From positions 1-22,662 of IMG/VR virus record IMGVR_UViG_3300022538_000055: a stretch of DNA of 22,662 bases. The stretch is one strand, 5' to 3'. Both the position numbers and the translations under genes were made by a program. The notes beneath the pieces are model-generated. The model saw only the letters and a program-made list of their open reading frames with translations, had not been told where the DNA came from and ran no database searches. Origin of the DNA: a virus. Numbering within the stretch: position 1 is the stretch's first letter; every line of letters begins with the position of its first letter. Shown piece by piece: positions 6,701 through 22,662 of the stretch.

Positions 6701-7549
6701 AGAAAGAGAAATCCTTATGACCCATTCAGTATCCTTACCCAGTGGACATTTGGTGGTCTGTTTGTGGGTGCTATGCAAGATATGACCCAGCTCATAACTG
6801 ATGCTGGGATGGCAGTTAACCTTTGGGGTGATGAGGACCAGGCTGAGCAAGCTAGGGGTAGATTACCTGGAAAGCTATCTGACCTAACTGAAATGTTAGT
6901 CACCTTCTATCGGAGGATTATAGATGTATGGGCTGCTTTTGAAGATACCCCAGACCAGGATGAGTACTGGCTCAGGAGGATGAGACAGCAGTTTGAAAAG
7001 GACTACACACTTGAAGAGCTTGACAAGCTACATATGACCCAAACGGAGCAGATGAAGAAAGCCACACTTGGTGCAAATCCCCCTGACCCTGATGCTTGGG
7101 AGAAATCCCAAAAGACTATGCAGGAGTCTAGGGACTTACTTGGTACAAGGGATATAAATGGTCGGTACTACACCCTTGAAGACCATGCTGGGGTAGTGGC
7201 CTCTACCACTAGGGGCTTCCCTGACATCTTTGTATCAGACTATGCTGGTTCGCATGGGCTAGATGTCTTCTATAAGGACTGTGAAACCCAATGGGAAGAG
7301 TACTACTTACTGCCCACAAAGCCTTCCTCTATCAGAGAAGATTGGCGAAGGGAACATGTAGAGGAGGAAGCTATGATGCTCTTTTGGGGCAAGTTACATA
7401 GTAGTAAGGCTCTTGGCTCTTCATATGAGGAGGTACTTGGTCTTCTAGTCTTTTGGGCAAATATGTTCAGGATTGATAAGTTTATGTTTCCTGAAGGAGC
7501 AACATGGAAGGATGAAGTAGAGCTAGGAATAGATTTATCAAGAGAGTGA
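797..7549 (+). CDS. Giant 2,250-residue virion-type protein with zinc metallopeptidase motif
   Basis: The start ATG is one base after the upstream stop, with AGAGG at 786-790 as ribosome site. Visible parts: an acidic N-terminal region; hydrophobic segments near residues 509-540 and 566-600; a coiled coil at about 762-842; a zincin motif His948-Glu-Ile-Ala-His952, with acidic residues Glu1011/Glu1012 downstream that could supply the third zinc ligand; a second charged helical stretch at about 1078-1147; and a long Trp/Tyr-rich helical C-terminal half with further hydrophobic segments near 1949-1964 and 1979-2008. The Ser-Leu-Arg-Asn-Thr-Phe-Gln stretch near 1717 recalls the large polyvalent protein associated domains of phages (inference, no search possible). 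Size, membrane-like segments and place between portal and scaffold suggest a protein packaged in the head and injected with DNA. The peptidase could act on the prohead or on the host. A tape measure is unlikely from its position. Confidence 0.7.
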   Translation: MAEPILPILPEFPTQWGEGEQERLKTLKEQKTQMEELYKTKFAPEAWEATPFPERLFRGMLPGTVFEPIISKLTPWQWGFDYGVTPEQARERMQKAEDEYSELLRMQRVVTILPSIQNTLRALALANATIITTREELDKYFKLSRLGFTEEEQAYVVTFAQDLLGMSKEDLTSGEPLGLQPITPGEIDALISGEHPILQPGQIMSTVAFSKDIDEITQTLRQAYPPVGGELDVAKGTENILQEILNAIRDLGVDVPEGASIPEMTSKAFDILGAGKGWVMPTDESGLPLIDPATNEPVVYVIDDDSYAWYGEDVIAYYDEGTGNLAPLSIAGEPLITDEQKEHALIDLGQAGIISMWNTAYMGEQYVLNAIPLYVQTLARAPLGEPPEIPVTLKITPERYMREFTIDEKYIVDGQLTGLGLRIAKAKEEQTKFDSFDARLIEIQYAYEQDYFAREQAYVDDMADFFKENPNWLPRPEWTEGIVERWGRNWKDVLDPGYLAYQVASNIHVYVAALASIGVTYLTKNPWLGMATATTMFLPLETESLRQDLIASGASYAQATELSIPGGALISSMECIGNIPLLKAVAPQFFAGFMATFRRGLAKQLLYYGIVTPAKIEFTEVFLEEVPQEVLHNLIVQSVDENRHLLENMPEVIAQSLVTMAPLAFMGGGGEYINMKRHLSAATQAQLDDMSRTFTDNGMSQDQADLLAFNYLTSTEEGMAQVQLAYDEATTYANPDSNTWTEASQGDVVYEDWDGTTGSSQDSLTEIANMESQLEDLSKNITDLEKILEDTEARLGRAEELAKTKKEILELEQIVTTLQEQLEELNIKRDTLIGSLEAKKRLVAEEPPLAPAKAKITRLEGGVKPEAIPVEPNVPKFHSTFNTKLQERWKEIVSGFPEILQRVKVARVKINSKLVDSHGNPVDSMTYDDGLIEFRNKAVAGNAHIVAHEIAHLWLLENMELQPKVDNMEMIKFWARAFGDTYLLKLIDAKEKTTVDKPVPIKWKDLDHDAEEAFCDAVPDFLGYPDPDTGFVVLEAEQEIFLKKYLFGEEVAPEAVKPTEKLGFMELQEEASKRGIISEQEYAEATINKRNELIERYRQLEVEIEKAREAGDYALVRKLKDELDRLYKFTSVMAVQLEYRAYVETGKILPEFEGLVPKNDSPIMPEVVKPKVEPEEVQGTPMPEAVRQGLIEWADELLNQVDIRKPSALHVIGISEGEALVRTDSTGRPMMIATLLMREGKLTLSTIASAEDRFANGRALLDIINYIKARKDIYFPPEIEMSEVAKKIYRKVMDKEKAKKVEEEPSLEPGLDEGEVKAFGIVLPREVLLKTELDKVDMATRTHPDIAKHIKINKDITELRERAKSGWESADEETKLAIAKRMHLGKAFIAKSWDGMSDYERGVVALDFIPDGSIHFSMAREIADMEEFLEFLEEATGLPFTAVYERAARSKNISEASKEYIVKDFAENPEFRDILQDEQQLIVATQELNARNEIQGVEHPDDALLTPEIVALVDEIQRIYDLYKPYVRYLEFMRTEAKVDVLKKRFPDAVKAGKESELIMALELRNRGEYNSLWLFLKGCTWGVYEYGFDPRQMAAPDLRVQDVPMGYVIGASSLNMRTKVEFPGFGKFRKNLVQRMLSYVTQMEIQWEIEPELRNFQKIWDMAYWKFENKDEIKNGLNKWWGIMQGIPSSYGWWTKQARRVWRQSMTAIFLEPVLSLRNTFQVGLLHMDRTELIRWLVHGKQDMSPIQRAKAKRFFDIFVSQLGGLRKYVLLVGQPGLPGLGWLNRAADALNLYGWSDYLPRQWSFFAYLNKAQRAVTQYLKDGDVGKLLKNSGAMHLRQTERNFLLTHYLARANDTFNLRVDGLEDITGAEMAAFYIARRNTDHTHFKYARWARGMVEMGVAGETLWNLFVFPRGYGIRVAGQAEKIVGLFKGETTWEEARGGFNDLIKLFIVAQLFSSLWKNLSGRKRNPYDPFSILTQWTFGGLFVGAMQDMTQLITDAGMAVNLWGDEDQAEQARGRLPGKLSDLTEMLVTFYRRIIDVWAAFEDTPDQDEYWLRRMRQQFEKDYTLEELDKLHMTQTEQMKKATLGANPPDPDAWEKSQKTMQESRDLLGTRDINGRYYTLEDHAGVVASTTRGFPDIFVSDYAGSHGLDVFYKDCETQWEEYYLLPTKPSSIREDWRREHVEEEAMMLFWGKLHSSKALGSSYEEVLGLLVFWANMFRIDKFMFPEGATWKDEVELGIDLSRE

Positions 7550-7555
7550 CAGGGC

Positions 7556-7584
7556 TTGACAAAATAGTTGAGGTATGTTAAGAT
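7556..7584 (+). promoter_or_regulatory. Sigma-70-type promoter for scaffold and capsid genes
   Basis: TTGACA at 7556-7561, a 17-base spacer, then TAAGAT at 7579-7584 preceded by TG at 7576-7577 (extended -10). It sits in the only gap between the giant gene and the scaffold gene, about 30 bases upstream of the scaffold ATG. The flanks match the promoter at 16383 (GGCTTGACAAA before, ATAAC at the end of the -10). Confidence 0.8.
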
Positions 7585-7612
7585 AACTGCAGTACATTAA
7601 AAAGGAGGAGAA

Positions 7613-8122
7613 ATGCCTGAAGAAGACAAAAAAGGCGATGGTGGGGATAACCCTGATGCCGAGGAAATCAAACCTGGTGCAGATGGGAAACACCCAGAAA
7701 CAGTTCCCTGGAACAAGTATGTTGGTATCAAGGAGAGCCTTGGTGGTAAACTGAAAACTGAAGGGGATAAGGCCAAAAGTCTTGAAGAGCAACTCAAAAA
7801 TGCTCCCAACAAGGAAGAGCACGACAAAACTGTGAAAGAGTTAGATGAGGCAAAGTCAGAGCTCCAGAAGGTAAAGGATGAGCTCAACCAAGGAAAAGAG
7901 AAGACTGCCAATGAGTTGAGGGAAGCCTTGAAAGAAAGTAAGGCTTTCACTGAAGAAGAACTAGGAAAGATGTCAGAGGCAGAGTTGCGAGCAGCTGTTA
8001 AAGCTGCAGGGGGCAAACCAAAATCTCTACCCGATTTAGGGGGTGGAGGTGGCGGAGGTGTGCCGACAGGCTCACCAATGAAACTAGCCAGAGATGCGTA
8101 TGCAAGCTCTGACAAAAAATAA
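7613..8122 (+). CDS. Probable capsid scaffolding protein
   Basis: A 169-residue, highly charged protein directly upstream of the major capsid gene. An acidic, Gly/Asp-rich N-terminus (residues 1-25) is followed by a helical, Lys/Glu-rich coiled-coil region (about 55-125), then a run of seven glycines and a short basic C-terminal end (about 150-169), which is where scaffolds usually contact the coat protein. Scaffolds direct assembly of capsid subunits into a prohead and are then released or cleaved. The assignment rests on composition and position, not on a conserved motif. It has a strong ribosome site (AAGGAGGAG) and lies just after a consensus promoter, which fits a protein made in large amounts together with the capsid protein. 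The Gly run also produces a long antisense open frame that is not a gene. Confidence 0.75.
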   Translation: MPEEDKKGDGGDNPDAEEIKPGADGKHPETVPWNKYVGIKESLGGKLKTEGDKAKSLEEQLKNAPNKEEHDKTVKELDEAKSELQKVKDELNQGKEKTANELREALKESKAFTEEELGKMSEAELRAAVKAAGGKPKSLPDLGGGGGGGVPTGSPMKLARDAYASSDKK

Positions 8123-8142
8123 AATAAGGAGGAATAAATACT

Positions 8143-9147
8143 ATGGCAGATGCTTGGACTTTAGCTGAGTTAAGCAAAATAGAAACTGATACCTTGCGGA
8201 AGTCAGTGATAGACACGCTTCTGATGGAATCCAACCTGATGCAATTAGTTCCTTGGGAGACCATTGGGCAGCTTGCCACTACTATCGTAAGAGTACAAGA
8301 CCTACCTAGTGTTGGCTTTCGTAAGATAAATGCAGGTTATGCTGCTACGATTGGACACTTCGAGCAAAAAGTAGAGAACATCTCCTTGATGGGTTGTTAT
8401 ATGGACTGTGACAAGGCTATTGCTAGAGCTAAGAATACTATTGCGGATGCGAGAGCAATCGCACAGGTTATGGCTCTGAAGTCAATGGCTTACAAGTTCA
8501 ATGACAAGTTCATCAATGGGAATCCTGAAGTTGACCCTGAAGAATTCAAGGGTCTAGCTGAGAGAGTAGATGGTGTGGTCACTGAGGGTTACACTGACCA
8601 GAAGATTGCCCTTGGTGGAACTGTTGGTGCTGCTCGTGATGCAGGAATTCTGCATGATGATGTTAACTCTTTCAACTTCCTAGACAAGCTAGACCAGCTT
8701 ATCTACTCCATTAAGGGTCACCAGCCCGACTTCTTGCTAATGAACAAGAAAACACTTCTTGCTACTAGAGCGGTGCTCCGAAAGCTGAAATTGCTGGATA
8801 ATACCAGGGATATGTTTGACCGAGTGATAGATGTCTACCAAGGTGTTAAGATGATTGAAGTTGGCACTAAGGCTGACCAGACCACTGAGATTATCACTAA
8901 CACTGAGGATGAAGATGGCTCTTACACCAGTAATGTAGCTACTTCTATCTATGCGGTTAAGTTCGGAATTGGCGAACTGCTTTGGGGTATTCAAGAATAC
9001 CCACTAGAAGTTGAGGACAAGGGGATACTGGAGGCTTTGCCTGTCTACCGCACTGAGGTGGATTGGCCTCTAGGTTTGGCTCTTGCAGATGCAAGGTCTA
9101 TTGGAAGACTTTATGACATCTTCCCAGATTCCGTAACTGAGTCATAA
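8143..9147 (+). CDS. Major capsid protein (HK97-fold type)
   Basis: A 334-residue protein of normal length for a phage coat protein without a long N-terminal delta domain, which fits the separate scaffold gene just upstream. The N-terminus (Leu-Ala-Glu-Leu followed by a helix and then Leu-Val-Pro-Trp-Glu-Thr-Ile, residues 8-43) and the Pro-Asp-Phe-Leu-Leu-Met-Asn segment near residue 195 are typical of HK97-type major capsid proteins, where the latter begins the P-domain strand and helix. A Gly-Ile-Gly-Glu-Leu stretch followed by strands fills the C-terminal third. It forms the icosahedral shell. The leader has AAGGAGGAAT close to the ATG, nearly the same as the leader of the next gene, and both fit high expression. 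Family membership is recognised from pattern, not computed. Confidence 0.88.
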   Translation: MADAWTLAELSKIETDTLRKSVIDTLLMESNLMQLVPWETIGQLATTIVRVQDLPSVGFRKINAGYAATIGHFEQKVENISLMGCYMDCDKAIARAKNTIADARAIAQVMALKSMAYKFNDKFINGNPEVDPEEFKGLAERVDGVVTEGYTDQKIALGGTVGAARDAGILHDDVNSFNFLDKLDQLIYSIKGHQPDFLLMNKKTLLATRAVLRKLKLLDNTRDMFDRVIDVYQGVKMIEVGTKADQTTEIITNTEDEDGSYTSNVATSIYAVKFGIGELLWGIQEYPLEVEDKGILEALPVYRTEVDWPLGLALADARSIGRLYDIFPDSVTES

Positions 9148-9173
9148 AAAATAAATAAAGGAGGAATGATACT

Positions 9174-9869
9174 ATGGCGTTTGACGCAAAAGGGATTTTG
9201 AAAGGGCTTTATAGTGGAGCCTTAGTCCCAATGGATGAGAGTGATGTTGCAGCTGTTGCCCTTGCTGCTAATAGTGATGGTAACTGTGTAGTTGACATCC
9301 GCAAGACAGGTGCTAAGGGACTAGCTGCAGTGGCTGTCTACCTTGGGCCAAGTGCTTCGGAACAGGCTTTATTGGTCAATAACGACTATGCCCAGCTTAT
9401 CATCCAGGCTTCTGACAAGCTAGATGGAAGTTGGGAGAATGTGGCCTCTTTTCCAAAGGTTTACTACCATGTGCTTGAGTTGTATTGTACAGCTACTACA
9501 GCTTTTGTACCTGGGGATATTGGTGGAACTATCACGCAGGAAACTACTGTTGATACTGGAATACTTATAGCCTATGACCCAGAATTACTTGTCATTGGTG
9601 GAATAGGTAAGCTCTATATTGCAGTAACTGCTGAAACTGATGTCTTCAATGAGGCTTCAGGAAAGACCCTGACTTCATCTGTAACTGGTGCAGGGACTAA
9701 GACCTATGGTGTAGGAACTACAGTAGCTTCCCCAACAATGGCACCTGGTGTCTATGTTGTAAGGTTTGCTACTAACAAGCGATATGTTCGCTGTAACTGT
9801 GACGATGTGATTGATAGCTTTGGTAATGTGTGGATTCTCCTCACAGACAATGCTTTCGAGACACTTTAA
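9174..9869 (+). CDS. Probable capsid cement / head decoration protein
   Basis: A 231-residue, strand-rich protein directly after the major capsid gene, with almost the same leader (AAGGAGGAATGATACT before ATG). The first half holds a Gly-Leu-Ala-Ala-Val-Ala-Val core strand followed by a Ser-Asp-Lys-Leu-Asp-Gly-Ser-Trp turn near residue 83. This resembles the jellyroll-like cement proteins found after coat genes in many phages (the Bbp16 family is one candidate). The second half (about 125-231) looks like an additional beta domain with few charges, ending in Val-Trp-Ile-Leu-Leu-Thr-Asp. Such proteins sit on the capsid surface and stabilise it. It could instead be a head-tail joining protein. 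No catalytic motif is seen. A strong hairpin follows the stop codon. Confidence 0.55.
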   Translation: MAFDAKGILKGLYSGALVPMDESDVAAVALAANSDGNCVVDIRKTGAKGLAAVAVYLGPSASEQALLVNNDYAQLIIQASDKLDGSWENVASFPKVYYHVLELYCTATTAFVPGDIGGTITQETTVDTGILIAYDPELLVIGGIGKLYIAVTAETDVFNEASGKTLTSSVTGAGTKTYGVGTTVASPTMAPGVYVVRFATNKRYVRCNCDDVIDSFGNVWILLTDNAFETL

Positions 9870-9888
9870 GCTTGATTAGGTTGGTAGC

Positions 9889-9922
9889 CAAGGGGGAGGG
9901 GGATTTAACCCCCTTCTCCTTG
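9889..9922 (+). terminator. Strong hairpin after capsid genes (attenuator or mRNA end)
   Basis: Arms 9889-9902 and 9909-9922 pair over 14 positions with two G-U pairs and a 6-base ATTTAA loop; five consecutive G-C pairs close the loop. No U-tract follows (the next bases are TAGACC), so it is not a classic intrinsic terminator. It may cut read-through from the strong capsid transcript or protect the 3' end of processed mRNA. The next promoter is at 10439. Confidence 0.6.
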
Positions 9923-9941
9923 TAGACCAAAGGAGGATGAT

Positions 9942-10136
9942 ATGGCAGACTTTGGAAGAGATGTAGATATTGGCTTTCCTACAGTTGTAGGAGTAGCCGA
10001 AGTTTATGCCAAGGTTGATACAGAAGTAGCTGCTATCCTAGCTGACACAGGTGAACTGCAAACAGACTGGGCAAATGGTGGAAGACTTGACCTGCTCATA
10101 GATGCCATCAAAGCTAAGACAGATACGATAACATAA
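9942..10136 (+). CDS. Small phage protein, 64 residues, unknown
   Basis: The ribosome site AAGGAGG lies a few bases before the ATG. The C-terminal half carries the pattern Asp-Thr-Gly-Glu-Leu-Gln-Thr-Asp-Trp, then Gly-Gly-Arg-Leu-Asp, then Ile-Asp-Ala-Ile-Lys-Ala-Lys-Thr-Asp. Related short helical segments recur in uncultured phage tail and fibre proteins, so a structural or chaperone role is possible, but I cannot assign one. No signal peptide or membrane segment is visible. It lies between the capsid block and the tail block, 12 bases before the SD-proximal start region of the next small gene. Confidence 0.7.
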   Translation: MADFGRDVDIGFPTVVGVAEVYAKVDTEVAAILADTGELQTDWANGGRLDLLIDAIKAKTDTIT

Positions 10137-10154
10137 GCACTGAAGGAGGTGAAC

Positions 10155-10346
10155 ATGAGCCCAATACCAGAGATTGAGAAGCTAGAGAAGGGTGCGGGAA
10201 AGTCCCAAACTCAGGCAGCTATCTCTGCTTGCATACAACGAGAAATAAATAATGGTCGAGAAAGAGACCAGGCCATTGCTATGTGTCATGAGATGGCTCG
10301 TGGCAAGACAGGAGGTACACCTGCTGCACCAAAGGAAGGTGGGTAA
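10155..10346 (+). CDS. Small soluble protein, 63 residues, unknown
   Basis: The ATG at 10155 is preferred over an in-frame GTG at 10149. AGGAGG occupies 10144-10149, so the GTG overlaps the ribosome site, while the ATG sits five bases after it. The protein has a charged N-terminus, a central helix with two cysteines (residues 26 and 44) and a Gly/Pro-rich tail. The pattern Ser-Gln-Thr-Gln-Ala-Ala-Ile-Ser then Gln-Ala-Ile-Ala-Met-Cys is like short helical segments seen in phage head-maturation proteins, but the similarity is too short to assign a function. Its stop codon shares an A with the ATG of the next gene. Confidence 0.65.
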   Translation: MSPIPEIEKLEKGAGKSQTQAAISACIQREINNGRERDQAIAMCHEMARGKTGGTPAAPKEGG

Positions 10347-10495
10347 TGGCTGCCAAGGTTACTCCCCCAAAGTGGTTTCAGGAATGGCTAGTTAATGATT
10401 TCTTCCACCTGAAGAGAGATTTATGGTGGGTTAAATGGTTGACGCTAGCTATCTTAGCTGCTATAATAATGGCAGTAGTAACAGAGCTAATATAA
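10346..10495 (+). CDS. 49-residue single-pass membrane protein
   Basis: The ATG overlaps the upstream stop (TAATG), and AAGGAAGG at 10332-10339 serves as ribosome site. The first 30 residues are soluble, Trp-rich and slightly basic; residues 31-47 are a continuous hydrophobic segment (Leu-Thr-Leu-Ala-Ile-Leu and on), and the protein ends two residues later. The positive-inside rule puts the N-terminus in the cytoplasm. It might be a holin-like or assembly-related microprotein; no family was recognised. A near-consensus promoter lies inside the coding sequence of the membrane segment, so part of the base conservation may serve transcription. Confidence 0.55.
   Translation: MAAKVTPPKWFQEWLVNDFFHLKRDLWWVKWLTLAILAAIIMAVVTELI
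10439..10467 (+). promoter_or_regulatory. Near-consensus extended -10 promoter inside the 49-residue gene
   Basis: TTGACG at 10439-10444, a 17-base spacer, then a perfect TATAAT at 10462-10467 preceded by TG at 10459-10460. Transcription would start near 10474, about 30 bases before the ATG at 10505, whose ribosome site (AAGGAGG) follows the stop of the 49-residue gene. Confidence 0.7.
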
Positions 10496-10504
10496 GGAGG
10501 AAAT

Positions 10505-11059
10505 ATGATAAAGAAAATAGAACTTAAACTACCATCAAACCTACGAACTGGGGGTAAGTTCAAAGGTGTCTTTGATATAGAAATCAAGGATAAACTTGGT
10601 AATTTGCTTTCCAAGAGTAGAGCTGAGAATATCATCACTGATGAGGGTTTGAACTCAATACTCAATGTTTATCTTCATGCTGCTACGCAGATTACAGCTT
10701 GGTACTGTGTGATATTTGAGACTGATACTACACCCGCTGCTGGTACAACCTATGCAGTGCCTGTATTCACGGAGTGGGCAGCCTATGATGAAGCTACCAG
10801 ACCTGAGTATGTTGAGGCAGAGTCAACTGCTGAGTCAACAACTAACTCAGCCAACAAAGCAGTCTTCACAGCCAATGCCACCAAGACGCTCTATGGAGCA
10901 GCCTTAGTAGGCGGTGGGTCTGCCCCTACCACTAAGAGTAATGTCGCTGGTGGTGGTACTATGCCATGTGCTGGTAAGTTCGCTGCATCTCAGCCTGTGG
11001 TTGATGATAATGTAGTAAACCTGACCTACACAGTCACAGCAGCAGATGATGCAGTCTAA
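10505..11059 (+). CDS. Virion structural protein, probably tail or fibre, 184 residues
   Basis: A protein with a basic N-terminus, then Leu-Lys-Leu-Pro-Ser, a strand-rich Gly-Lys-Phe-Lys-Gly-Val-Phe-Asp segment and an Asn-Ile-Ile-Thr-Asp-Glu-Gly-Leu-Asn motif (residues 42-50). This arrangement, a short strand followed by '(N)xxTxxGLN', opens many small phage tail and fibre-associated proteins. The rest is Thr/Ala-rich with low charge and few helices, as expected for beta-structured virion proteins. It is the first gene downstream of the promoter at 10439 and is followed by the large propeller protein. The exact role is unknown. Confidence 0.6.
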   Translation: MIKKIELKLPSNLRTGGKFKGVFDIEIKDKLGNLLSKSRAENIITDEGLNSILNVYLHAATQITAWYCVIFETDTTPAAGTTYAVPVFTEWAAYDEATRPEYVEAESTAESTTNSANKAVFTANATKTLYGAALVGGGSAPTTKSNVAGGGTMPCAGKFAASQPVVDDNVVNLTYTVTAADDAV

Positions 11060-11063
11060 TCAG

Positions 11064-11089
11064 CTAATACATAAGAATAGAGGTATTAG
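11064..11089 (+). promoter_or_regulatory. Hairpin abutting the start codon of the propeller gene
   Basis: CTAATAC at 11064-11070 pairs perfectly with GTATTAG at 11083-11089 across a 12-base loop. The right arm ends at the base before the ATG (11090), and the ribosome site (AGAGG, 11079-11083) lies in the loop and the closing pair. It could lower translation of a very large protein. The stem is A/T-rich and only 7 bp. Confidence 0.4.
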
Positions 11090-13435
11090 ATGGCTGATGT
11101 AACGATTGAGGTTGCTGCCAAGAATACTCTATGGAATATGGCAGTGAGAGGGGGTGTATTCTGGACTTCCCCTACGACTGGTTATGTTATTTATATTAAT
11201 GACTCTTCTGACCTAGTATATAGAAAGACAACTAATGGTGGAGCTGCCTGGGGTGGTGCTGTAAATATCAAGACAGGCACTATAATTAACTTTGATTCTT
11301 GGGCAGACTGGCAAACGGAAGGGGATGCTGGCACTAAAATACATATAGCCTACATAGACGCTGATGCCAATGATGTTCATTATGTGTATCTGGATACAAG
11401 TGGCGACTCAGTTGGCGGAGACGACCAGATAGAGGCTTGCCAGGGAACTGGAGCAATATACACAGTAGTGAGGTGGGATTATGTGCTGATATCCATAACT
11501 AAAACCAGGGGTGGTAATTTTGCTGTTGCTCTTCATTATCGAGACTCAGACCAAGTTCATTTTTACTCATTTTATACTTCACCAGATGCTACTACGTGGA
11601 CTAGCGAAGCATCACCCTGGGAAGCTGCTGGTGATTTTATATTACTATTTCCAGGCAACGAAGTGGATAATCAAGATGTGTGGGCTGCATTTTGGGATGG
11701 GTCTGCGAACGCAATATCGCTTAAAACCTATGATGACTCTGGAGATAGCTGGTCAGAACAAGCCTTTTCTGGACTGATGATTGACCATCCATATCATCTA
11801 CAGATGGATGGACAAGTTCGGCTGACTGATGGACACCTTATCTTTGCTGCGTGGAGTAGGTTTGATAATCTTACCTCCGATTTGATGGTTTGGGACATAA
11901 ATGGAGCAGGGAGCATTACAGCAAAGACCAACATAATTACTGATACAGCTGAGTATGCTCTGGTTTCTGTGTTTATCAATCAGGTCAATGACGATATTTA
12001 TGTTGCCTATGTTGGTGGCACAGATATGGGCAATTTCGTAAAGGCTTTTTACCAGAAGTCTGTTGATGGAGGTGCTAATTGGGGAGGACAGGAAGCACTA
12101 CAGGCTGATGCCGAGGATGATGAGAGGTGGATTAGTGCTGGTGCTATGAAGGCTGCCTGGGGTGGTAAGTTTCAACCCTTCTGGTTTAATATTGACCTTC
12201 ATGACCTATTCACAAATACCAATAATGGTATTTTAATTGAGGCTGCAGGAGAAGAAGCTTTTCAACTAAGTATTACCGATTTAATCTCAATGGGTGATAG
12301 TAGCCTCAAGAGTATGCTTGCTGGATTGTCAATAGATGATGGTTTTAAGTCAGGGGATACAAATAATCCTTTTGGAATGATAAGCAGGGCTGATGGTTTG
12401 GAGATTGGAGATAGTCATTCCATCTTAGCCAGCTTGCTAGCTAGTGATAGCTTGAAGGTAGGGGATACCCCTCTTTACAATCTTATTTGGTATCTTATCA
12501 CTACTGATGGCATAAGGCTTGGGGATTCTACTCTTGTAAACTTAATCTTACCCCTTATTGTTACCGATGGCACAAAGCTGGGTGATAGTCTCTCTCTCTT
12601 AGCTAAACTGATAATCAGTGATGGTTTAGAATTTGGGGACTCTCGCTCAGTGGAGATGCTTGCCAATTTACTTCAATCAGATGGGGTGAAGCTAGGCGAT
12701 TCTACTACATACGGAGAAGCTATTCTCTATTTAGCTATTGTAGAGGGTCTAAAGGCAGGAGATACACACCTTATTGAGATGCTAGCAGATATTCAAACAT
12801 CAGATGGTACAAAGGTAGGTGACTCTTCCCTGATAGGGATGCTCACTAGCTTGCTCTCCGCAGATGGATTAGAGGTAGGTGATAGTACCTCTAGCTTAGT
12901 TGATATATTACCAGCAGTTATTGATAGATTAAAGATAGGGGACTCTAGACTCCTTGAAGCTCTTATGTCCCTCAGTCATACTGATGGAGTTAAGCTAGGC
13001 ACAGTTGCCAATATATATATCTCACTGATTGGTAGATTACTTAGAATGTGGCTTTCCACAAAAACTTATCACAATGTTAGTATGTTTACAGAACCCTACC
13101 ATTGTGTTACAATACGGACAGGAGGAGAAGATATGATTAGAAGAGATTGGCAAAGAGGTGAAACAGTCCCAATATGGGCTGAAGTTAAACTGACTTCAAA
13201 TGGTGCTTTATATGACCCAGAGGCTATTATCCTTTACCTCTATGATGAGGCTGATGCAACTATTGTTGATGGTGAAGCTATGGTCTATGACTCCCAGGGA
13301 ATGTATGTATACTACCACCAAACAGCTATTGATGCCATACTGGGCTGGTACAGAGCTAAGGGTAAGGTTACTGATGGTTCTGGTGAGACTCTCAGAGTCA
13401 CATTAGAGAATGGTGGCTTCAATCTCCAAGTATAA
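11090..13435 (+). CDS. 781-residue virion protein: sialidase-like propeller, DGxKxGDS repeats, C-terminal cap domain
   Basis: Residues 1-380 look like a BNR/sialidase-type beta-propeller: Asp-box-like turns at Thr47-Trp54 (Asn in place of the usual Asp) and Ser324-Trp331 (Ser-x-Asp-Gly-Gly-x-x-Trp), a looser one near Tyr-Asp-Asp-Ser-Gly-Asp-Ser-Trp, and many Trp/Tyr strands. I see no complete sialidase catalytic set, so binding is more likely than hydrolysis. Residues about 392-640 are some 13 copies of a roughly 20-residue repeat. A linker with two short Tyr-x-x-Val-x-x-x-Thr units (about 656-680) leads to a 100-residue C-terminal domain. The order suggests a receptor- or surface-binding tail protein with a repeat stalk. 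The start has a weak ribosome site inside a hairpin. The last 100 residues also form a separate gene with its own signals. Confidence 0.7.
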   Translation: MADVTIEVAAKNTLWNMAVRGGVFWTSPTTGYVIYINDSSDLVYRKTTNGGAAWGGAVNIKTGTIINFDSWADWQTEGDAGTKIHIAYIDADANDVHYVYLDTSGDSVGGDDQIEACQGTGAIYTVVRWDYVLISITKTRGGNFAVALHYRDSDQVHFYSFYTSPDATTWTSEASPWEAAGDFILLFPGNEVDNQDVWAAFWDGSANAISLKTYDDSGDSWSEQAFSGLMIDHPYHLQMDGQVRLTDGHLIFAAWSRFDNLTSDLMVWDINGAGSITAKTNIITDTAEYALVSVFINQVNDDIYVAYVGGTDMGNFVKAFYQKSVDGGANWGGQEALQADAEDDERWISAGAMKAAWGGKFQPFWFNIDLHDLFTNTNNGILIEAAGEEAFQLSITDLISMGDSSLKSMLAGLSIDDGFKSGDTNNPFGMISRADGLEIGDSHSILASLLASDSLKVGDTPLYNLIWYLITTDGIRLGDSTLVNLILPLIVTDGTKLGDSLSLLAKLIISDGLEFGDSRSVEMLANLLQSDGVKLGDSTTYGEAILYLAIVEGLKAGDTHLIEMLADIQTSDGTKVGDSSLIGMLTSLLSADGLEVGDSTSSLVDILPAVIDRLKIGDSRLLEALMSLSHTDGVKLGTVANIYISLIGRLLRMWLSTKTYHNVSMFTEPYHCVTIRTGGEDMIRRDWQRGETVPIWAEVKLTSNGALYDPEAIILYLYDEADATIVDGEAMVYDSQGMYVYYHQTAIDAILGWYRAKGKVTDGSGETLRVTLENGGFNLQV
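12263..13010 (+). repeat. About 13 tandem ~20-residue DGxKxGDS protein repeats
   Basis: Within the 781-residue protein the unit Asp-Gly-Leu-Lys-x-Gly-Asp-Ser/Thr followed by 9-12 mostly hydrophobic residues recurs about 13 times. The Gly-Asp-Ser core is nearly invariant, whereas DNA copies are well diverged, so the array is old and kept at protein level. The last copy lacks the Asp-Ser. The hydrophobic spacing suits a beta-solenoid or stacked stalk. Confidence 0.85.
13085..13113 (+). promoter_or_regulatory. Internal extended -10 promoter for the nested gene
   Basis: TTTACA at 13085-13090, a 17-base spacer, then TACAAT at 13108-13113 preceded by TG at 13105-13106. Each hexamer matches consensus at five of six positions. 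The expected start point, about 13120, is only some 12 bases before the ATG at 13133, so the leader would be barely longer than its ribosome site. Confidence 0.5.
13133..13435 (+). CDS. Nested 100-residue gene, C-terminal domain of the propeller protein
   Basis: An in-frame ATG (codon 682 of the 781-residue gene) preceded by AGGAGG at 13120-13125, a ribosome site far better than that of the parent gene. A promoter-like sequence lies just upstream. The product starts Met-Ile-Arg-Arg-Asp-Trp-Gln-Arg-Gly-Glu, continues with Val-Pro-Ile-Trp-Ala-Glu-Val and ends in strands, an immunoglobulin-like layout (inference). Proteins with this Arg-Gly-Glu-x-Val-Pro-Ile-Trp opening also seem familiar to me as stand-alone small phage proteins. 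It could be made both as the C-terminus of the long protein and alone, giving extra copies of a cap or trimerising domain. Coexpression is inferred, not shown. Confidence 0.55.
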   Translation: MIRRDWQRGETVPIWAEVKLTSNGALYDPEAIILYLYDEADATIVDGEAMVYDSQGMYVYYHQTAIDAILGWYRAKGKVTDGSGETLRVTLENGGFNLQV

Positions 13436-20273: not shown

Positions 20274-20975
20274 TTAAATGCTAGTCTTGCTAGTCCGACT
20301 GAACTGGTTGAGCCTCTTGTATATACCCTCTAAGCTCAGCACATCCTCATCACAATGCTTCAGTATATAGGCTAGAGCTTGCTGAGAGCCAGCCTGTGCT
20401 CGTTGCCACACCTCAGGATTAAGGCGGTGTTCCTTAGAAGGGATACCTAATAGGTCACAGACATTCTCCATTCTAGTCCTATGAAGCCTCAATTTGGGTT
20501 TAGCTAAATCATAGGCATCAGTAAAAAGATAATCCTTCCACTCAGGAAACTCTAGCCCCCACTTGAGTGCTCTAGTCCTGAGAAAAGGAACATCAAAGCG
20601 GTAGTCCTTAGAGTAGTAGCCCACCAATCTATCAAAGGGTACAATGTCTTTGAGGAACTGCTTCATAACACCCTTATCAAAGGTGTAGCTTCTTATCTCC
20701 AGTGGTGTGACCAACCTATGTTTTAGCTCACCATCTAGTTCCTTGATGGAGTAGCACAGTATATAGCCAAAGTCAGCTGCGAGGTTAGTGGCTTCTATAT
20801 CCAAGAAGCCTACCTTCTCTACTGTGCCTATCCTATCCTTGTACTCCTCAAGGAAACATTGGGGATGTTCTGTGTACCTATGGTTGTGCTTGCATTTATG
20901 GTTAAACAACCATATGATTTCCTCCTTTAATAGTCTGTTGTAGTTTATACCAGACGGTATCCTTTCTTCATTCAC
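20274..20975 (-). CDS. DnaQ/RNase H-like 3'-5' exonuclease
   Basis: 233 residues. Exo I: Phe-Leu-Asp59-Ile-Glu61-Ala-Thr. Exo II: Tyr-Arg-Phe-Asp128-Val-Pro-Phe-Leu. Exo III: His207-Cys-Asp-Glu-Asp211-Val. These acidic residues would hold two metal ions for removal of 3' nucleotides. The set resembles the RNase_H_2 (YprB-like) branch of DnaQ exonucleases. The N-terminal 55 residues carry Cys28, His30, His32, His37 and Cys40, a possible metal site. The start overlaps the methyltransferase stop, and the AGGAGG of this gene encodes the two arginines near the end of that enzyme. As the polymerase gene upstream lacks its exonuclease part, this could be the separate proofreading subunit, though repair or nucleotide salvage is possible. 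Confidence 0.82.
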   Translation of the reverse strand: MNEERIPSGINYNRLLKEEIIWLFNHKCKHNHRYTEHPQCFLEEYKDRIGTVEKVGFLDIEATNLAADFGYILCYSIKELDGELKHRLVTPLEIRSYTFDKGVMKQFLKDIVPFDRLVGYYSKDYRFDVPFLRTRALKWGLEFPEWKDYLFTDAYDLAKPKLRLHRTRMENVCDLLGIPSKEHRLNPEVWQRAQAGSQQALAYILKHCDEDVLSLEGIYKRLNQFSRTSKTSI

Positions 20976-21657
20976 TTAACCTCCTCAGGATTATCTTATA
21001 ATAATCCTCATCTATTTCCCAGCCAAGATAGTTACGACCAGTCAACTTGGCTGCTTCAGCACTAGCACCTGAACCCACATAAGGGTCTATGATTATGTTC
21101 CCAGGCTCAGTGGTTAGTTCTATTATCTGCTTGTATAAGTCTACTGGCTTCTCAGTTGAATGTAACCTATTAGTTCCTACTCTTGGTATGTCCCAAGATT
21201 CCAAATCATTAAGTCTCTTGTCCTTGAGCTTCCACTGTCCCTTGACACCAAAGAAGATAACCTCATACATGTTGCCAAAGCTCCCTTCCAAATCACCAGC
21301 AGTCCAGTTACCCTTGTTCCAAATTATCTGATTCCTAATAAGTCCTCTTGGCATAAACTTAGCTTGAAACCACCAAGCTTCTTGCCAGTTGGTGAAGAAC
21401 CAGAAGGTTCTATCCATCTTGAGGACACGGATACATTCCTCAACTGTGCGTAGCTGGTCAGCCCTATCTTGCTGGACTAAGGACTGGCTTAGCTTACCCC
21501 CCTTATCTTTCCTATGTCCAGTCTTGTAGTCAAAATAAGGTGGGTCTATGAGGGCTAGGTCTGCTATACCCTCACCCATGCCCATTAGGGCTTCAAGGCT
21601 ATCTCCATGTAGTATTAGTGGGGGTGATACTTCACTCACTAGTTCTTCTCTATCCAA
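20968..21657 (-). CDS. DNA methyltransferase, N6-adenine/N4-cytosine type (beta class order)
   Basis: 229 residues. Catalytic motif IV Asp38-Pro-Pro-Tyr41 precedes motif I Asp191-Pro-Tyr-Val-Gly-Ser-Gly197, the beta-class order of the N6_N4_Mtase family. His166-Ser-Thr-Glu-Lys-Pro-Val precedes motif I, and Trp-Glu-Ile-Asp (213-216) follows it, all as expected for AdoMet binding. Asp-Pro-Pro-Tyr fits amino-group methylation, not C5-cytosine. The target cannot be read from sequence. The start is a TTG at 21657 with a weak GGAG. A GTG at 21639, overlapping the TAG of the upstream gene, is the alternative and would drop six residues. No restriction partner is adjacent, so it probably protects phage DNA or marks it for another process. 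Confidence 0.92.
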   Translation of the reverse strand: MDREELVSEVSPPLILHGDSLEALMGMGEGIADLALIDPPYFDYKTGHRKDKGGKLSQSLVQQDRADQLRTVEECIRVLKMDRTFWFFTNWQEAWWFQAKFMPRGLIRNQIIWNKGNWTAGDLEGSFGNMYEVIFFGVKGQWKLKDKRLNDLESWDIPRVGTNRLHSTEKPVDLYKQIIELTTEPGNIIIDPYVGSGASAEAAKLTGRNYLGWEIDEDYYKIILRRLSE

Positions 21658-21800
21658 AGTTCTAACTCCATTCTTGGTAGAGACAGGACAAAGGATATAC
21701 CTTTACCATAGTAAGTTATCTGAAATCCCAATGTATAACTCTTTGTCTTGAATATCCCAAGACCAATGAAACTTAATCTTATACTGTCAAACCGCTTCAT
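21639..21800 (-). CDS. Small protein, 53 residues, unknown
   Basis: The ATG overlaps the polymerase stop (ATGA) and AGGAGGTAAA lies directly before it, within the end of the polymerase gene, so translation signals are strong. The product is basic at the N-terminus (Met-Lys-Arg-Phe-Asp), strand-rich with hydrophobic and aromatic residues, and acidic at the C-terminus. It is not clearly a membrane protein. It overlaps the start of the methyltransferase by 19 bases if that enzyme uses its TTG. Function unknown. Confidence 0.6.
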   Translation of the reverse strand: MKRFDSIRLSFIGLGIFKTKSYTLGFQITYYGKGISFVLSLPRMELELWIEKN

Positions 21801-22519
21801 TTTACCTCCTCTAATTGATTATAAATCTTCCCTATCTTAACTGTGAATGGATACTGTGGGATATAGTGTGCTAGGGTTTTACATATCTCTATGGATTGTG
21901 AAAGCAATTCATCTGGACATTCCAATAACCATTCATCATGTACTTGTAATACAAACCTTACAGAATAGTCTAACATATTCCTTAGATAAAGTCCAGCCAT
22001 TTTAACAATATCCACAGCCATACCTTGCACAATACTATTAACTATCTCCCTTTCAGCAGCTTCCCTTGCTCTAAAGCTACCAGCATAGAGCTCAGGGATA
22101 GGTCTGATACGACCAAAGGGACTCACTACATAGCCACACTTCTTAGCCTTAACCTTCTCTTCCTCTATCCATTCGTAGAGTCTAGGATAAGCAGCCTTGT
22201 GCTCTGCCATAAATACTAGGGCTTCCTCCTCTGTACACTCCAGCATAAGGGCAAGCTTAAATTCATCAGCACCATAGACCATAGCGAAGTTACCTTGCTT
22301 AGCCTTGTACCTCCTAGACCTCATCTCCTCCACATCATCTGTCCAGCCAAACATACGGATGGCAGTTCCCATGTGAAGGTCTCCAGTTTCCAAGTCCTCC
22401 AGCATTTGGGGGTCTCCACTAAGGTAAGCTAAGACCAACAATTCGATTTGGGAGGCATCAAGTGAGATAAAAGAATAGCCAGCTTCAGCTATGATACAAG
22501 AGCGTAAGGTATCAGTCAT
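21797..22519 (-). CDS. Family A DNA polymerase, C-terminal palm/fingers part as a separate gene
   Basis: 240 residues align to the end of Pol I. Motif A: Leu-Asp21-Ala-Ser-Gln-Ile-Glu26-Leu-Leu28 (Leu where Pol I has Arg). Motif B: Arg70-x3-Lys74-x3-Phe78-x3-Tyr82-Gly. Motif C: Gln-Val-His194-Asp195-Glu196. Both metal-binding aspartates are present, with the expected Gly-Arg-Ile-Arg-Pro-Ile-Pro and Ala-Glu-Arg...Gln-Gly-Met-Ala segments between. The gene begins only about 20 residues before motif A, so the exonuclease, the thumb and the template-binding palm segment before motif A are absent. A TAG two codons before the ATG closes the frame, and upstream DNA encodes DUF4326. A GGAG seven bases before the ATG supports this start. 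The missing part may be a separate gene outside the window, or the gene may be a remnant. Confidence 0.92.
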   Translation of the reverse strand: MTDTLRSCIIAEAGYSFISLDASQIELLVLAYLSGDPQMLEDLETGDLHMGTAIRMFGWTDDVEEMRSRRYKAKQGNFAMVYGADEFKLALMLECTEEEALVFMAEHKAAYPRLYEWIEEEKVKAKKCGYVVSPFGRIRPIPELYAGSFRAREAAEREIVNSIVQGMAVDIVKMAGLYLRNMLDYSVRFVLQVHDEWLLECPDELLSQSIEICKTLAHYIPQYPFTVKIGKIYNQLEEVK

Positions 22520-22662
22520 TTGCTAACTCCAATAGAATATCTGCATGACAAGGTAAGGGAGCACACCAGCACACTAGGTCTTTGCCACGCAGTTCTTCTA
22601 TATCATTTATTAGACCACTTAGGTGGAGATACAGCTTGTATTCCATTATGACCTCCTCCCTA
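22512..22662 (-). CDS. DUF4326 protein, C-terminal part (5' end outside window)
   Basis: The frame is open to the window edge. It reads Arg-Glu-Glu-Val-Ile-Met-Glu-Tyr, then an amphipathic helix and Leu-Arg-Gly-Lys-Asp-Leu-Val-Cys-Trp-Cys-Ala-Pro followed by Cys-His-Ala-Asp-Ile-Leu-Leu-Glu-Leu-Ala, the closing motif of DUF4326. The Cys-x-Cys...Cys-His set probably binds a metal. The family is common in phages, and its biochemical role is not known to me. An ATG at 22646 after GGGAGGAGG could be read as a 44-residue gene, but the family-like residues before it favour a longer protein with an internal Met. The TGA overlaps the polymerase start by eight bases. Confidence 0.8.
   Translation of the reverse strand, partial: REEVIMEYKLYLHLSGLINDIEELRGKDLVCWCAPLPCHADILLELAND

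What the first reader, a model, noticed from the sequence alone, without database searches (positions are those of the whole stretch)
21797..22519. Family A DNA polymerase encoded as a half: gene starts just before motif A
All three polymerase motifs and both catalytic aspartates are intact, but the exonuclease, the thumb and the part of the palm before motif A are missing, the frame is closed by a TAG two codons upstream, and the adjacent DNA encodes DUF4326. Good translation signals argue against decay. It may be a true split polymerase whose N-terminal partner lies elsewhere, with the exonuclease at 20274 as a third piece. Split family B polymerases are known in some T4-like phages; a family A split at this exact point is not something I know as described.
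Basis: partly seen in the sequence, partly recalled or inferred. Interest (0 to 1): 0.62.

Follow-up and report, generated by a model that had tools for sequence, protein, structure and literature searches.

The report
Phage DNA polymerase in two genes
This phage gene makes only the catalytic half of a DNA-copying enzyme; two sister phages keep a gene for the missing half immediately in front of it, so the enzyme is probably a true two-piece polymerase, a rare layout already reported once in marine phages.

Summary
21797-22519(-) encodes only the palm-after-NLQN/fingers part of a family A DNA polymerase, with catalytic residues intact, and overlaps the stop of a DUF4326 gene cut off by the contig end. 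It is a real gene half, not decay or a bad join. Two syntenic sister phages (L129, 38.6 kb; L044, 26.2 kb) start the same gene at the same codon (67-71% identity, purifying selection). In both, the upstream neighbour is the N-terminal half (exonuclease-like domain, thumb, start of palm), overlapping by the same 8 nt. L129 has everything, including GRxxS...PNLQN; its joined halves align collinearly with Taq and Klenow. An intact one-chain homologue sits in a more distant member of the phage family. The window's N-half most likely lies beyond DUF4326, off the contig. Best model: two polypeptides assemble without splicing. The 'third piece' idea is not supported: the exonuclease gene is absent from both sisters. 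The kind is not new: OM43 phages MEP401/402 (PMC10580990) and relatives have family A polymerases split 15 residues downstream, once with seven genes between the halves. This is a second lineage, probably independent (not proven). Unexplained: L044's N-half lacks the NLQN motif.

The parts
21797..22519 (-). C-terminal half of a family A DNA polymerase (end of palm, fingers), 240 aa, own start codon
   Evidence: PF00476 140-362/381, E 2.4e-50; same start codon in L129 and L044
22512..22519 (-). 8-nt stop/start overlap ATGACTGA between upstream gene and C-half; same geometry in L129 (ATGACTGA) and L044 (ATGGCTAA)
22527..22530 (-). GGAG, Shine-Dalgarno-like, 7 nt before the ATG
   Evidence: sequence read directly
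22512..22662 (-). DUF4326 gene, 3' part only (runs off the contig); occupies the place where sister phages have the polymerase N-half
   Evidence: PF14216 54-82/82, E 7e-11; family members in G011/G014 end ...ELANR*, this one ...ELAND*
22439..22459 (-). Motif A DASQIEL, catalytic Asp at codon 21
22274..22312 (-). Motif B RYKAKQGNFAMVY (fingers)
21932..21940 (-). Motif C HDE, second catalytic Asp at codon 195
20968..21657 (-). Downstream N6/N4 DNA methyltransferase gene, syntenic in L129 and L044 (context, not part of the polymerase)
   Evidence: PF01555 E 2.4e-29; 72% and 62% identity
20274..20975 (-). Stand-alone RNase H-like 3'-5' exonuclease gene (RNase_H_2); considered as third piece and not supported
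   Evidence: PF13482 E 7.7e-12, phrog_403; absent from L129 and L044

Best explanation
The gene is the C-terminal subunit of a two-gene family A replicative DNA polymerase. An N-half gene (exonuclease-like domain, thumb, palm up to the GRxxS...PNLQN primer-template motif) and this C-half gene (rest of palm, fingers, both catalytic aspartates) are translated separately, normally by translational coupling across an 8-nt stop/start overlap. The two proteins then assemble, without splicing, into one Klenow-like polymerase. In the window phage a DUF4326 gene probably sits between the halves and has inherited the coupling; its N-half should lie just beyond the contig end. Shown: conserved C-half, its start, the overlap, and N-half neighbours in sister phages. 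Inferred: assembly, activity, and the window's own N-half.
For: Two syntenic sisters, L129 (71%) and L044 (67%), start the C-half at the same codon. Directly upstream each has an N-half ORF; the two N-halves are 58% identical over 297 aa and hit DNA_pol_A_exo1 and the first part of DNA_pol_A. L129 N-half ends ...TGRWRSGDKKMGKPNLQNITRDSKFEDSND*, overlapping the C-half ATG; the joined halves align collinearly with Taq and Klenow, E about 1e-53 for Taq. Differences are concentrated at third codon positions (0.51 against 0.17 at second), dN 0.23 with dS saturated, and the window lineage is not accelerated (20 private changes against 21 in L129). No other polymerase match in L129's tested replication genes. 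A more distant family member, G011, has an intact 545-aa homologue beside an ERCC4-type gene as in L129; it groups with the split clade (SH-aLRT 93) and shares loss of the Exo III Asp. No Rfam intron. MEP401-type phages show that family A halves can persist separated by other genes.
Against: The window's own N-half is not in the data. L044's N-half lacks the GRxxS...PNLQN segment (profile 113-133), so one of three sisters lacks residues that contact primer-template in Klenow (the contact role is from general knowledge). The window has Leu at the otherwise invariant motif A Arg.
Confidence: 0.8

Rival explanations
1. The gene is the downstream exon of an intron-interrupted polymerase: a self-splicing intron, or a trans-splicing pair, joins the halves at RNA level.
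For: SPO1-like phage Goe26 has its polymerase interrupted at GRLSSENP^NAQN with a separate 3' piece and an ORF between; the MEP401 authors suggested an intron for their phages.
Against: In L129 the halves overlap by 8 nt, leaving no room for an intron. C-halves have their own SD and start. No Rfam intron in the window or L044, although Rfam also found none in Goe26, so this negative is weak. In ct2os315, of the other split lineage, seven genes lie between the halves.
Confidence: 0.05
2. A broken polymerase: the N-half was lost or replaced by DUF4326 in the window phage and the C-half is a relic, with the host enzyme used instead.
For: Window N-half unseen; the motif A Arg is Leu; L044's N-half has lost its motif segment.
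Against: Intact catalytic set, third-position-biased differences, no rate acceleration, conserved start, SD and overlap.
Confidence: 0.1
3. Programmed +1 frameshifting fuses the upstream ORF to the C-half, making one chain.
For: Upstream ORF and C-half are in +1 relation with the same 8-nt overlap in all three phages.
Against: In the window a frameshift would fuse DUF4326, not the N-half, to the C-half; each C-half has its own SD and ATG; L044 has a different overlap sequence.
Confidence: 0.04
4. A three-part polymerase with the 20274 exonuclease as third subunit.
For: The Exo III Asp is lost from the N-half exonuclease domain; the intact-polymerase relative G011 also has an RNase_H_2 gene next to its polymerase.
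Against: No homologue in L129 or L044; the closest homologue of the exonuclease (70%) lies in a 9-kb record with no polymerase match and a different neighbourhood.
Confidence: 0.1
5. Assembly join or sequencing artefact.
For: The window ends 143 bases upstream of the gene.
Against: Same gene start and overlap geometry in contigs from two other metagenomes.
Confidence: 0.01

Closest known systems
Split family A DNA polymerase of OM43 phages MEP401/MEP402 (PMC10580990; OP830906, OP830907) and relatives: Alcaligenes phage QDWS535, ctOsX528, ct2os315
   Same: Family A polymerase in two genes: N-half with exonuclease domain ending soon after NLQN, C-half starting before or at motif A; halves adjacent (QDWS535), separated by one small ORF (MEP401, ctOsX528) or by seven genes (ct2os315)
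   Different: MEP401's C-half starts 15 residues nearer motif A; low sequence identity; a separate clade in the best tree, though one common origin is not rejected (AU p 0.38); DUF4326 is the neighbour here; the authors suspected an intron
Intron-interrupted family A polymerases of SPO1-like phages (for example Goe26; literature on HMU phages cited in PMC10580990)
   Same: Interrupted in the same short segment (GRLSSENP^NAQN)
   Different: A gap with an ORF lies between the pieces and the published relatives splice a group I intron; here genes overlap or coding genes intervene
Split PolB with split intein in phage MIJ3 (PMC6892783)
   Same: Replicative polymerase in two phage genes with a gene between
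   Different: Family B; intein sequences at the junction, none here
Split DNA Pol III alpha of group 2.2 jumbo phages (PMC7824862)
   Same: Polymerase domains in separate phage genes
   Different: Family C, different fold and break

Membership tests
Family A DNA polymerase (PF00476) | Palm and fingers with motifs A, B, C | tested here: met
   E 2.4e-50, catalytic residues present
Family A DNA polymerase (PF00476) | Thumb and GRLSS...NLQN part of palm in the same chain | tested here: not met
   Absent from the window gene and window; present in the L129 N-half
Two-gene split family A polymerase (MEP401-like layout) | Both halves encoded in the same genome | tested here: inconclusive
   Met in L129 and L044; the window contig ends before it could show
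Two-gene split family A polymerase (MEP401-like layout) | Break between NLQN and motif A | tested here: met
   C-half starts 20 residues before the motif A Asp; L129 N-half ends after NLQN
Two-gene split family A polymerase (MEP401-like layout) | Halves associate into an active enzyme | not testable with these tools
MEP401 polymerase lineage | Common descent of the split | tested here: inconclusive
   Separate clades in best tree; one clade not rejected, AU p 0.38
Intron-interrupted polymerase gene | Recognisable intron at the break | tested here: not met
   No Rfam match at E<=1 in window and L044; 8-nt gene overlap in L129
Split intein polymerase | Intein N and C parts at the junction | tested here: not met
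   C-half starts MTDTLRSC directly in polymerase sequence; L129 N-half runs through NLQN to its stop; contrast L096 and L104

The most novel reading that the evidence does not exclude
Splitting of family A polymerases in the short NLQN-to-motif A segment is recurrent and stable: a break that tolerates gene insertions, so replicative PolA can live as an obligate heterodimer, and in L044-type phages even without the conserved primer-template (minor-groove) motif, with a replaced N-half tail doing its job.
Probability: 0.15. Interest if true: 0.7.

Novelty: new variant of a known kind. Interest (0 to 1): 0.42.

Why it matters
It gives a second, probably independent phage lineage with a physically split family A replicative polymerase, at a different residue from the published one. 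It points to a short palm segment where single-chain polymerases, inteins, introns and gene splits all occur. That makes a natural heterodimeric PolA directly testable, offers a natural break point for split polymerases as tools, and warns that half-length polA genes in phage contigs need not be assembly errors or pseudogenes.

Tried and rejected
Single-protein IMG/VR search with the C-half found nothing; an alignment-based search found L044 and, with L044 added, L129. One genome scan (84,980 species) found no relative. Nearest GenBank 'phage' hits were polA contigs of bacterial type, intact. All 79 other viral loci have an open frame reaching well upstream of motif A except L078, which keeps 14 residues. 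Intron searches negative. Frameshift hypothesis rejected because the window's upstream frame is DUF4326. Six-frame search for a stray GRLSS/NLQN segment in L044 and the window found none. L044's 46-aa tail has no relative in GenBank phages or the session's loci. Third-subunit idea tested and not supported. AlphaFold was closed, so no model or fold search.

Full report
OBSERVATION. The gene at 21797-22519(-) is as described. It encodes 240 aa matching PF00476 only from position 140, with motifs A, B and C and both catalytic aspartates. By Klenow numbering (my own counting from D705), its first residues correspond to about 685 and its Arg6 to R690. The stop codon upstream and DUF4326 are real. 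DUF4326 ends at its family's natural C-terminus (...ELAND* against ...ELANR* in G011 and G014) and its frame is open to the contig end, so it is a gene cut by the contig end rather than a scrap fused to the polymerase. The ATG of the polymerase half and the TGA of DUF4326 share ATGACTGA.

SISTERS. An alignment-based IMG/VR search found L044 (67%), and an alignment of window plus L044 found L129 (71%). Both are syntenic with the window over the parts they share: major head protein 69% (L129), methyltransferase 72% and 62%. All three start the half gene at the same codon (M-x-x-T-L-R), with an SD-like sequence and an 8-nt overlap with the gene before. In L129 the gene before is the N-half: exonuclease-like domain, thumb, and palm through GRWRSGDKKMGKPNLQNITR. 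Joined, the halves align collinearly with Taq (E about 1e-53) and Klenow (E about 1e-48) (the joining is only a reading device). In L044 the gene before is a 58% identical N-half, but after GRIHTDFD its last 46 residues are unrelated to any sequence found, and the GRxxS...NLQN segment is missing.

NOT DECAY. Between window and L129, the fraction of differing sites at codon positions 1, 2 and 3 is 0.26, 0.17 and 0.51. NG86 dN is 0.23 with dS saturated. Private amino acid changes are 20 (window), 21 (L129) and 30 (L044). L129, 38.6 kb and running from packaging genes through the replication module, shows only this polymerase among the genes tested. One caution is the motif A Arg (R712-equivalent), Leu in the window and Arg in 41 of 41 others.

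ORIGIN. Of the more distant phages sharing the major head protein, four have intact 545-581 aa polymerases. The one in G011 is nearest to the split clade in the tree (SH-aLRT 93, a long branch), has a nuclease gene of the same kind just upstream, and shares an unusual change: the Exo III Tyr...Asp is replaced, with His at the Asp position, in G011, L129 and L044. The split therefore probably arose inside this phage family from an intact gene whose proofreading domain had already lost a catalytic residue (inference).

PRECEDENT. The OM43 phages MEP401 and MEP402 encode family A polymerase in two ORFs around a small unknown ORF; the authors wondered about an intron (PMC10580990). Read here, MEP401's N-half ends ...TGRLSSSSPNLQNFDGEIKTLFLSRYGE* and its C-half starts MILNAD, 15 residues nearer motif A than the window's. 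Relatives show the halves overlapping by one base (QDWS535), around a 68-aa ORF (ctOsX528), or with seven genes between (ct2os315). The last excludes an ordinary intron there, and shows that genes between the halves, as DUF4326 suggests here, are tolerated. The best tree keeps the two lineages apart (two changes), but a single origin is not rejected (AU p 0.38). The same short segment also hosts inteins in L096 and L104 (NLQN^C) and the interruption in SPO1-like Goe26 (GRLSSENP^NAQN).

MECHANISM. Most likely the halves are translated by coupling and fold together, the break falling in the palm between the R682 and R690 equivalents. Translation as separate genes follows from the sequence; assembly and activity are inferred. 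DUF4326 may simply be cargo. The stand-alone exonuclease at 20274 could in principle restore proofreading to a polymerase with a damaged exonuclease domain, but neither sister has it, so it is not a conserved subunit.

LIMITS.

Noticed in passing
L044:3868-4008: Last ~46 residues of the N-half are replaced by sequence of unknown origin, removing the primer-template motif GRxxS...NLQN that intact relatives keep.
   Followed up: partly
L096 and L104, just before motif A: Family A polymerases carry intein-like insertions at NLQN^C, within the same segment where the split occurs.
   Followed up: partly
L129:4013-5005, L044:2974-4008, L151 (G011 polymerase): Exo III catalytic Asp (and Tyr) of the polymerase exonuclease domain is lost, suggesting no proofreading by that domain in this phage group.
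   Followed up: yes
L133:347-2921 and its counterpart in L126:14004-16630: Three-gene cluster of an unknown protein, a ThiF/E1-like protein and a JAB-like protein, conserved in both sister phages; resembles parts of ubiquitin-like conjugation systems.
   Followed up: partly
window 22439-22459: Motif A reads DASQIELL; the Arg after DASQIEL, invariant in 41 others, is Leu.
   Followed up: partly
L007:3-5247: Record with the closest homologue (70%) of the window exonuclease has apparent intein-like insertions in two structural genes.
   Followed up: no
L148 (MW202796) 6923-12392: Deposited phage ct2os315 has polymerase A halves 3.6 kb apart with seven genes between, annotated merely as two DNA polymerases.
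   Followed up: yes
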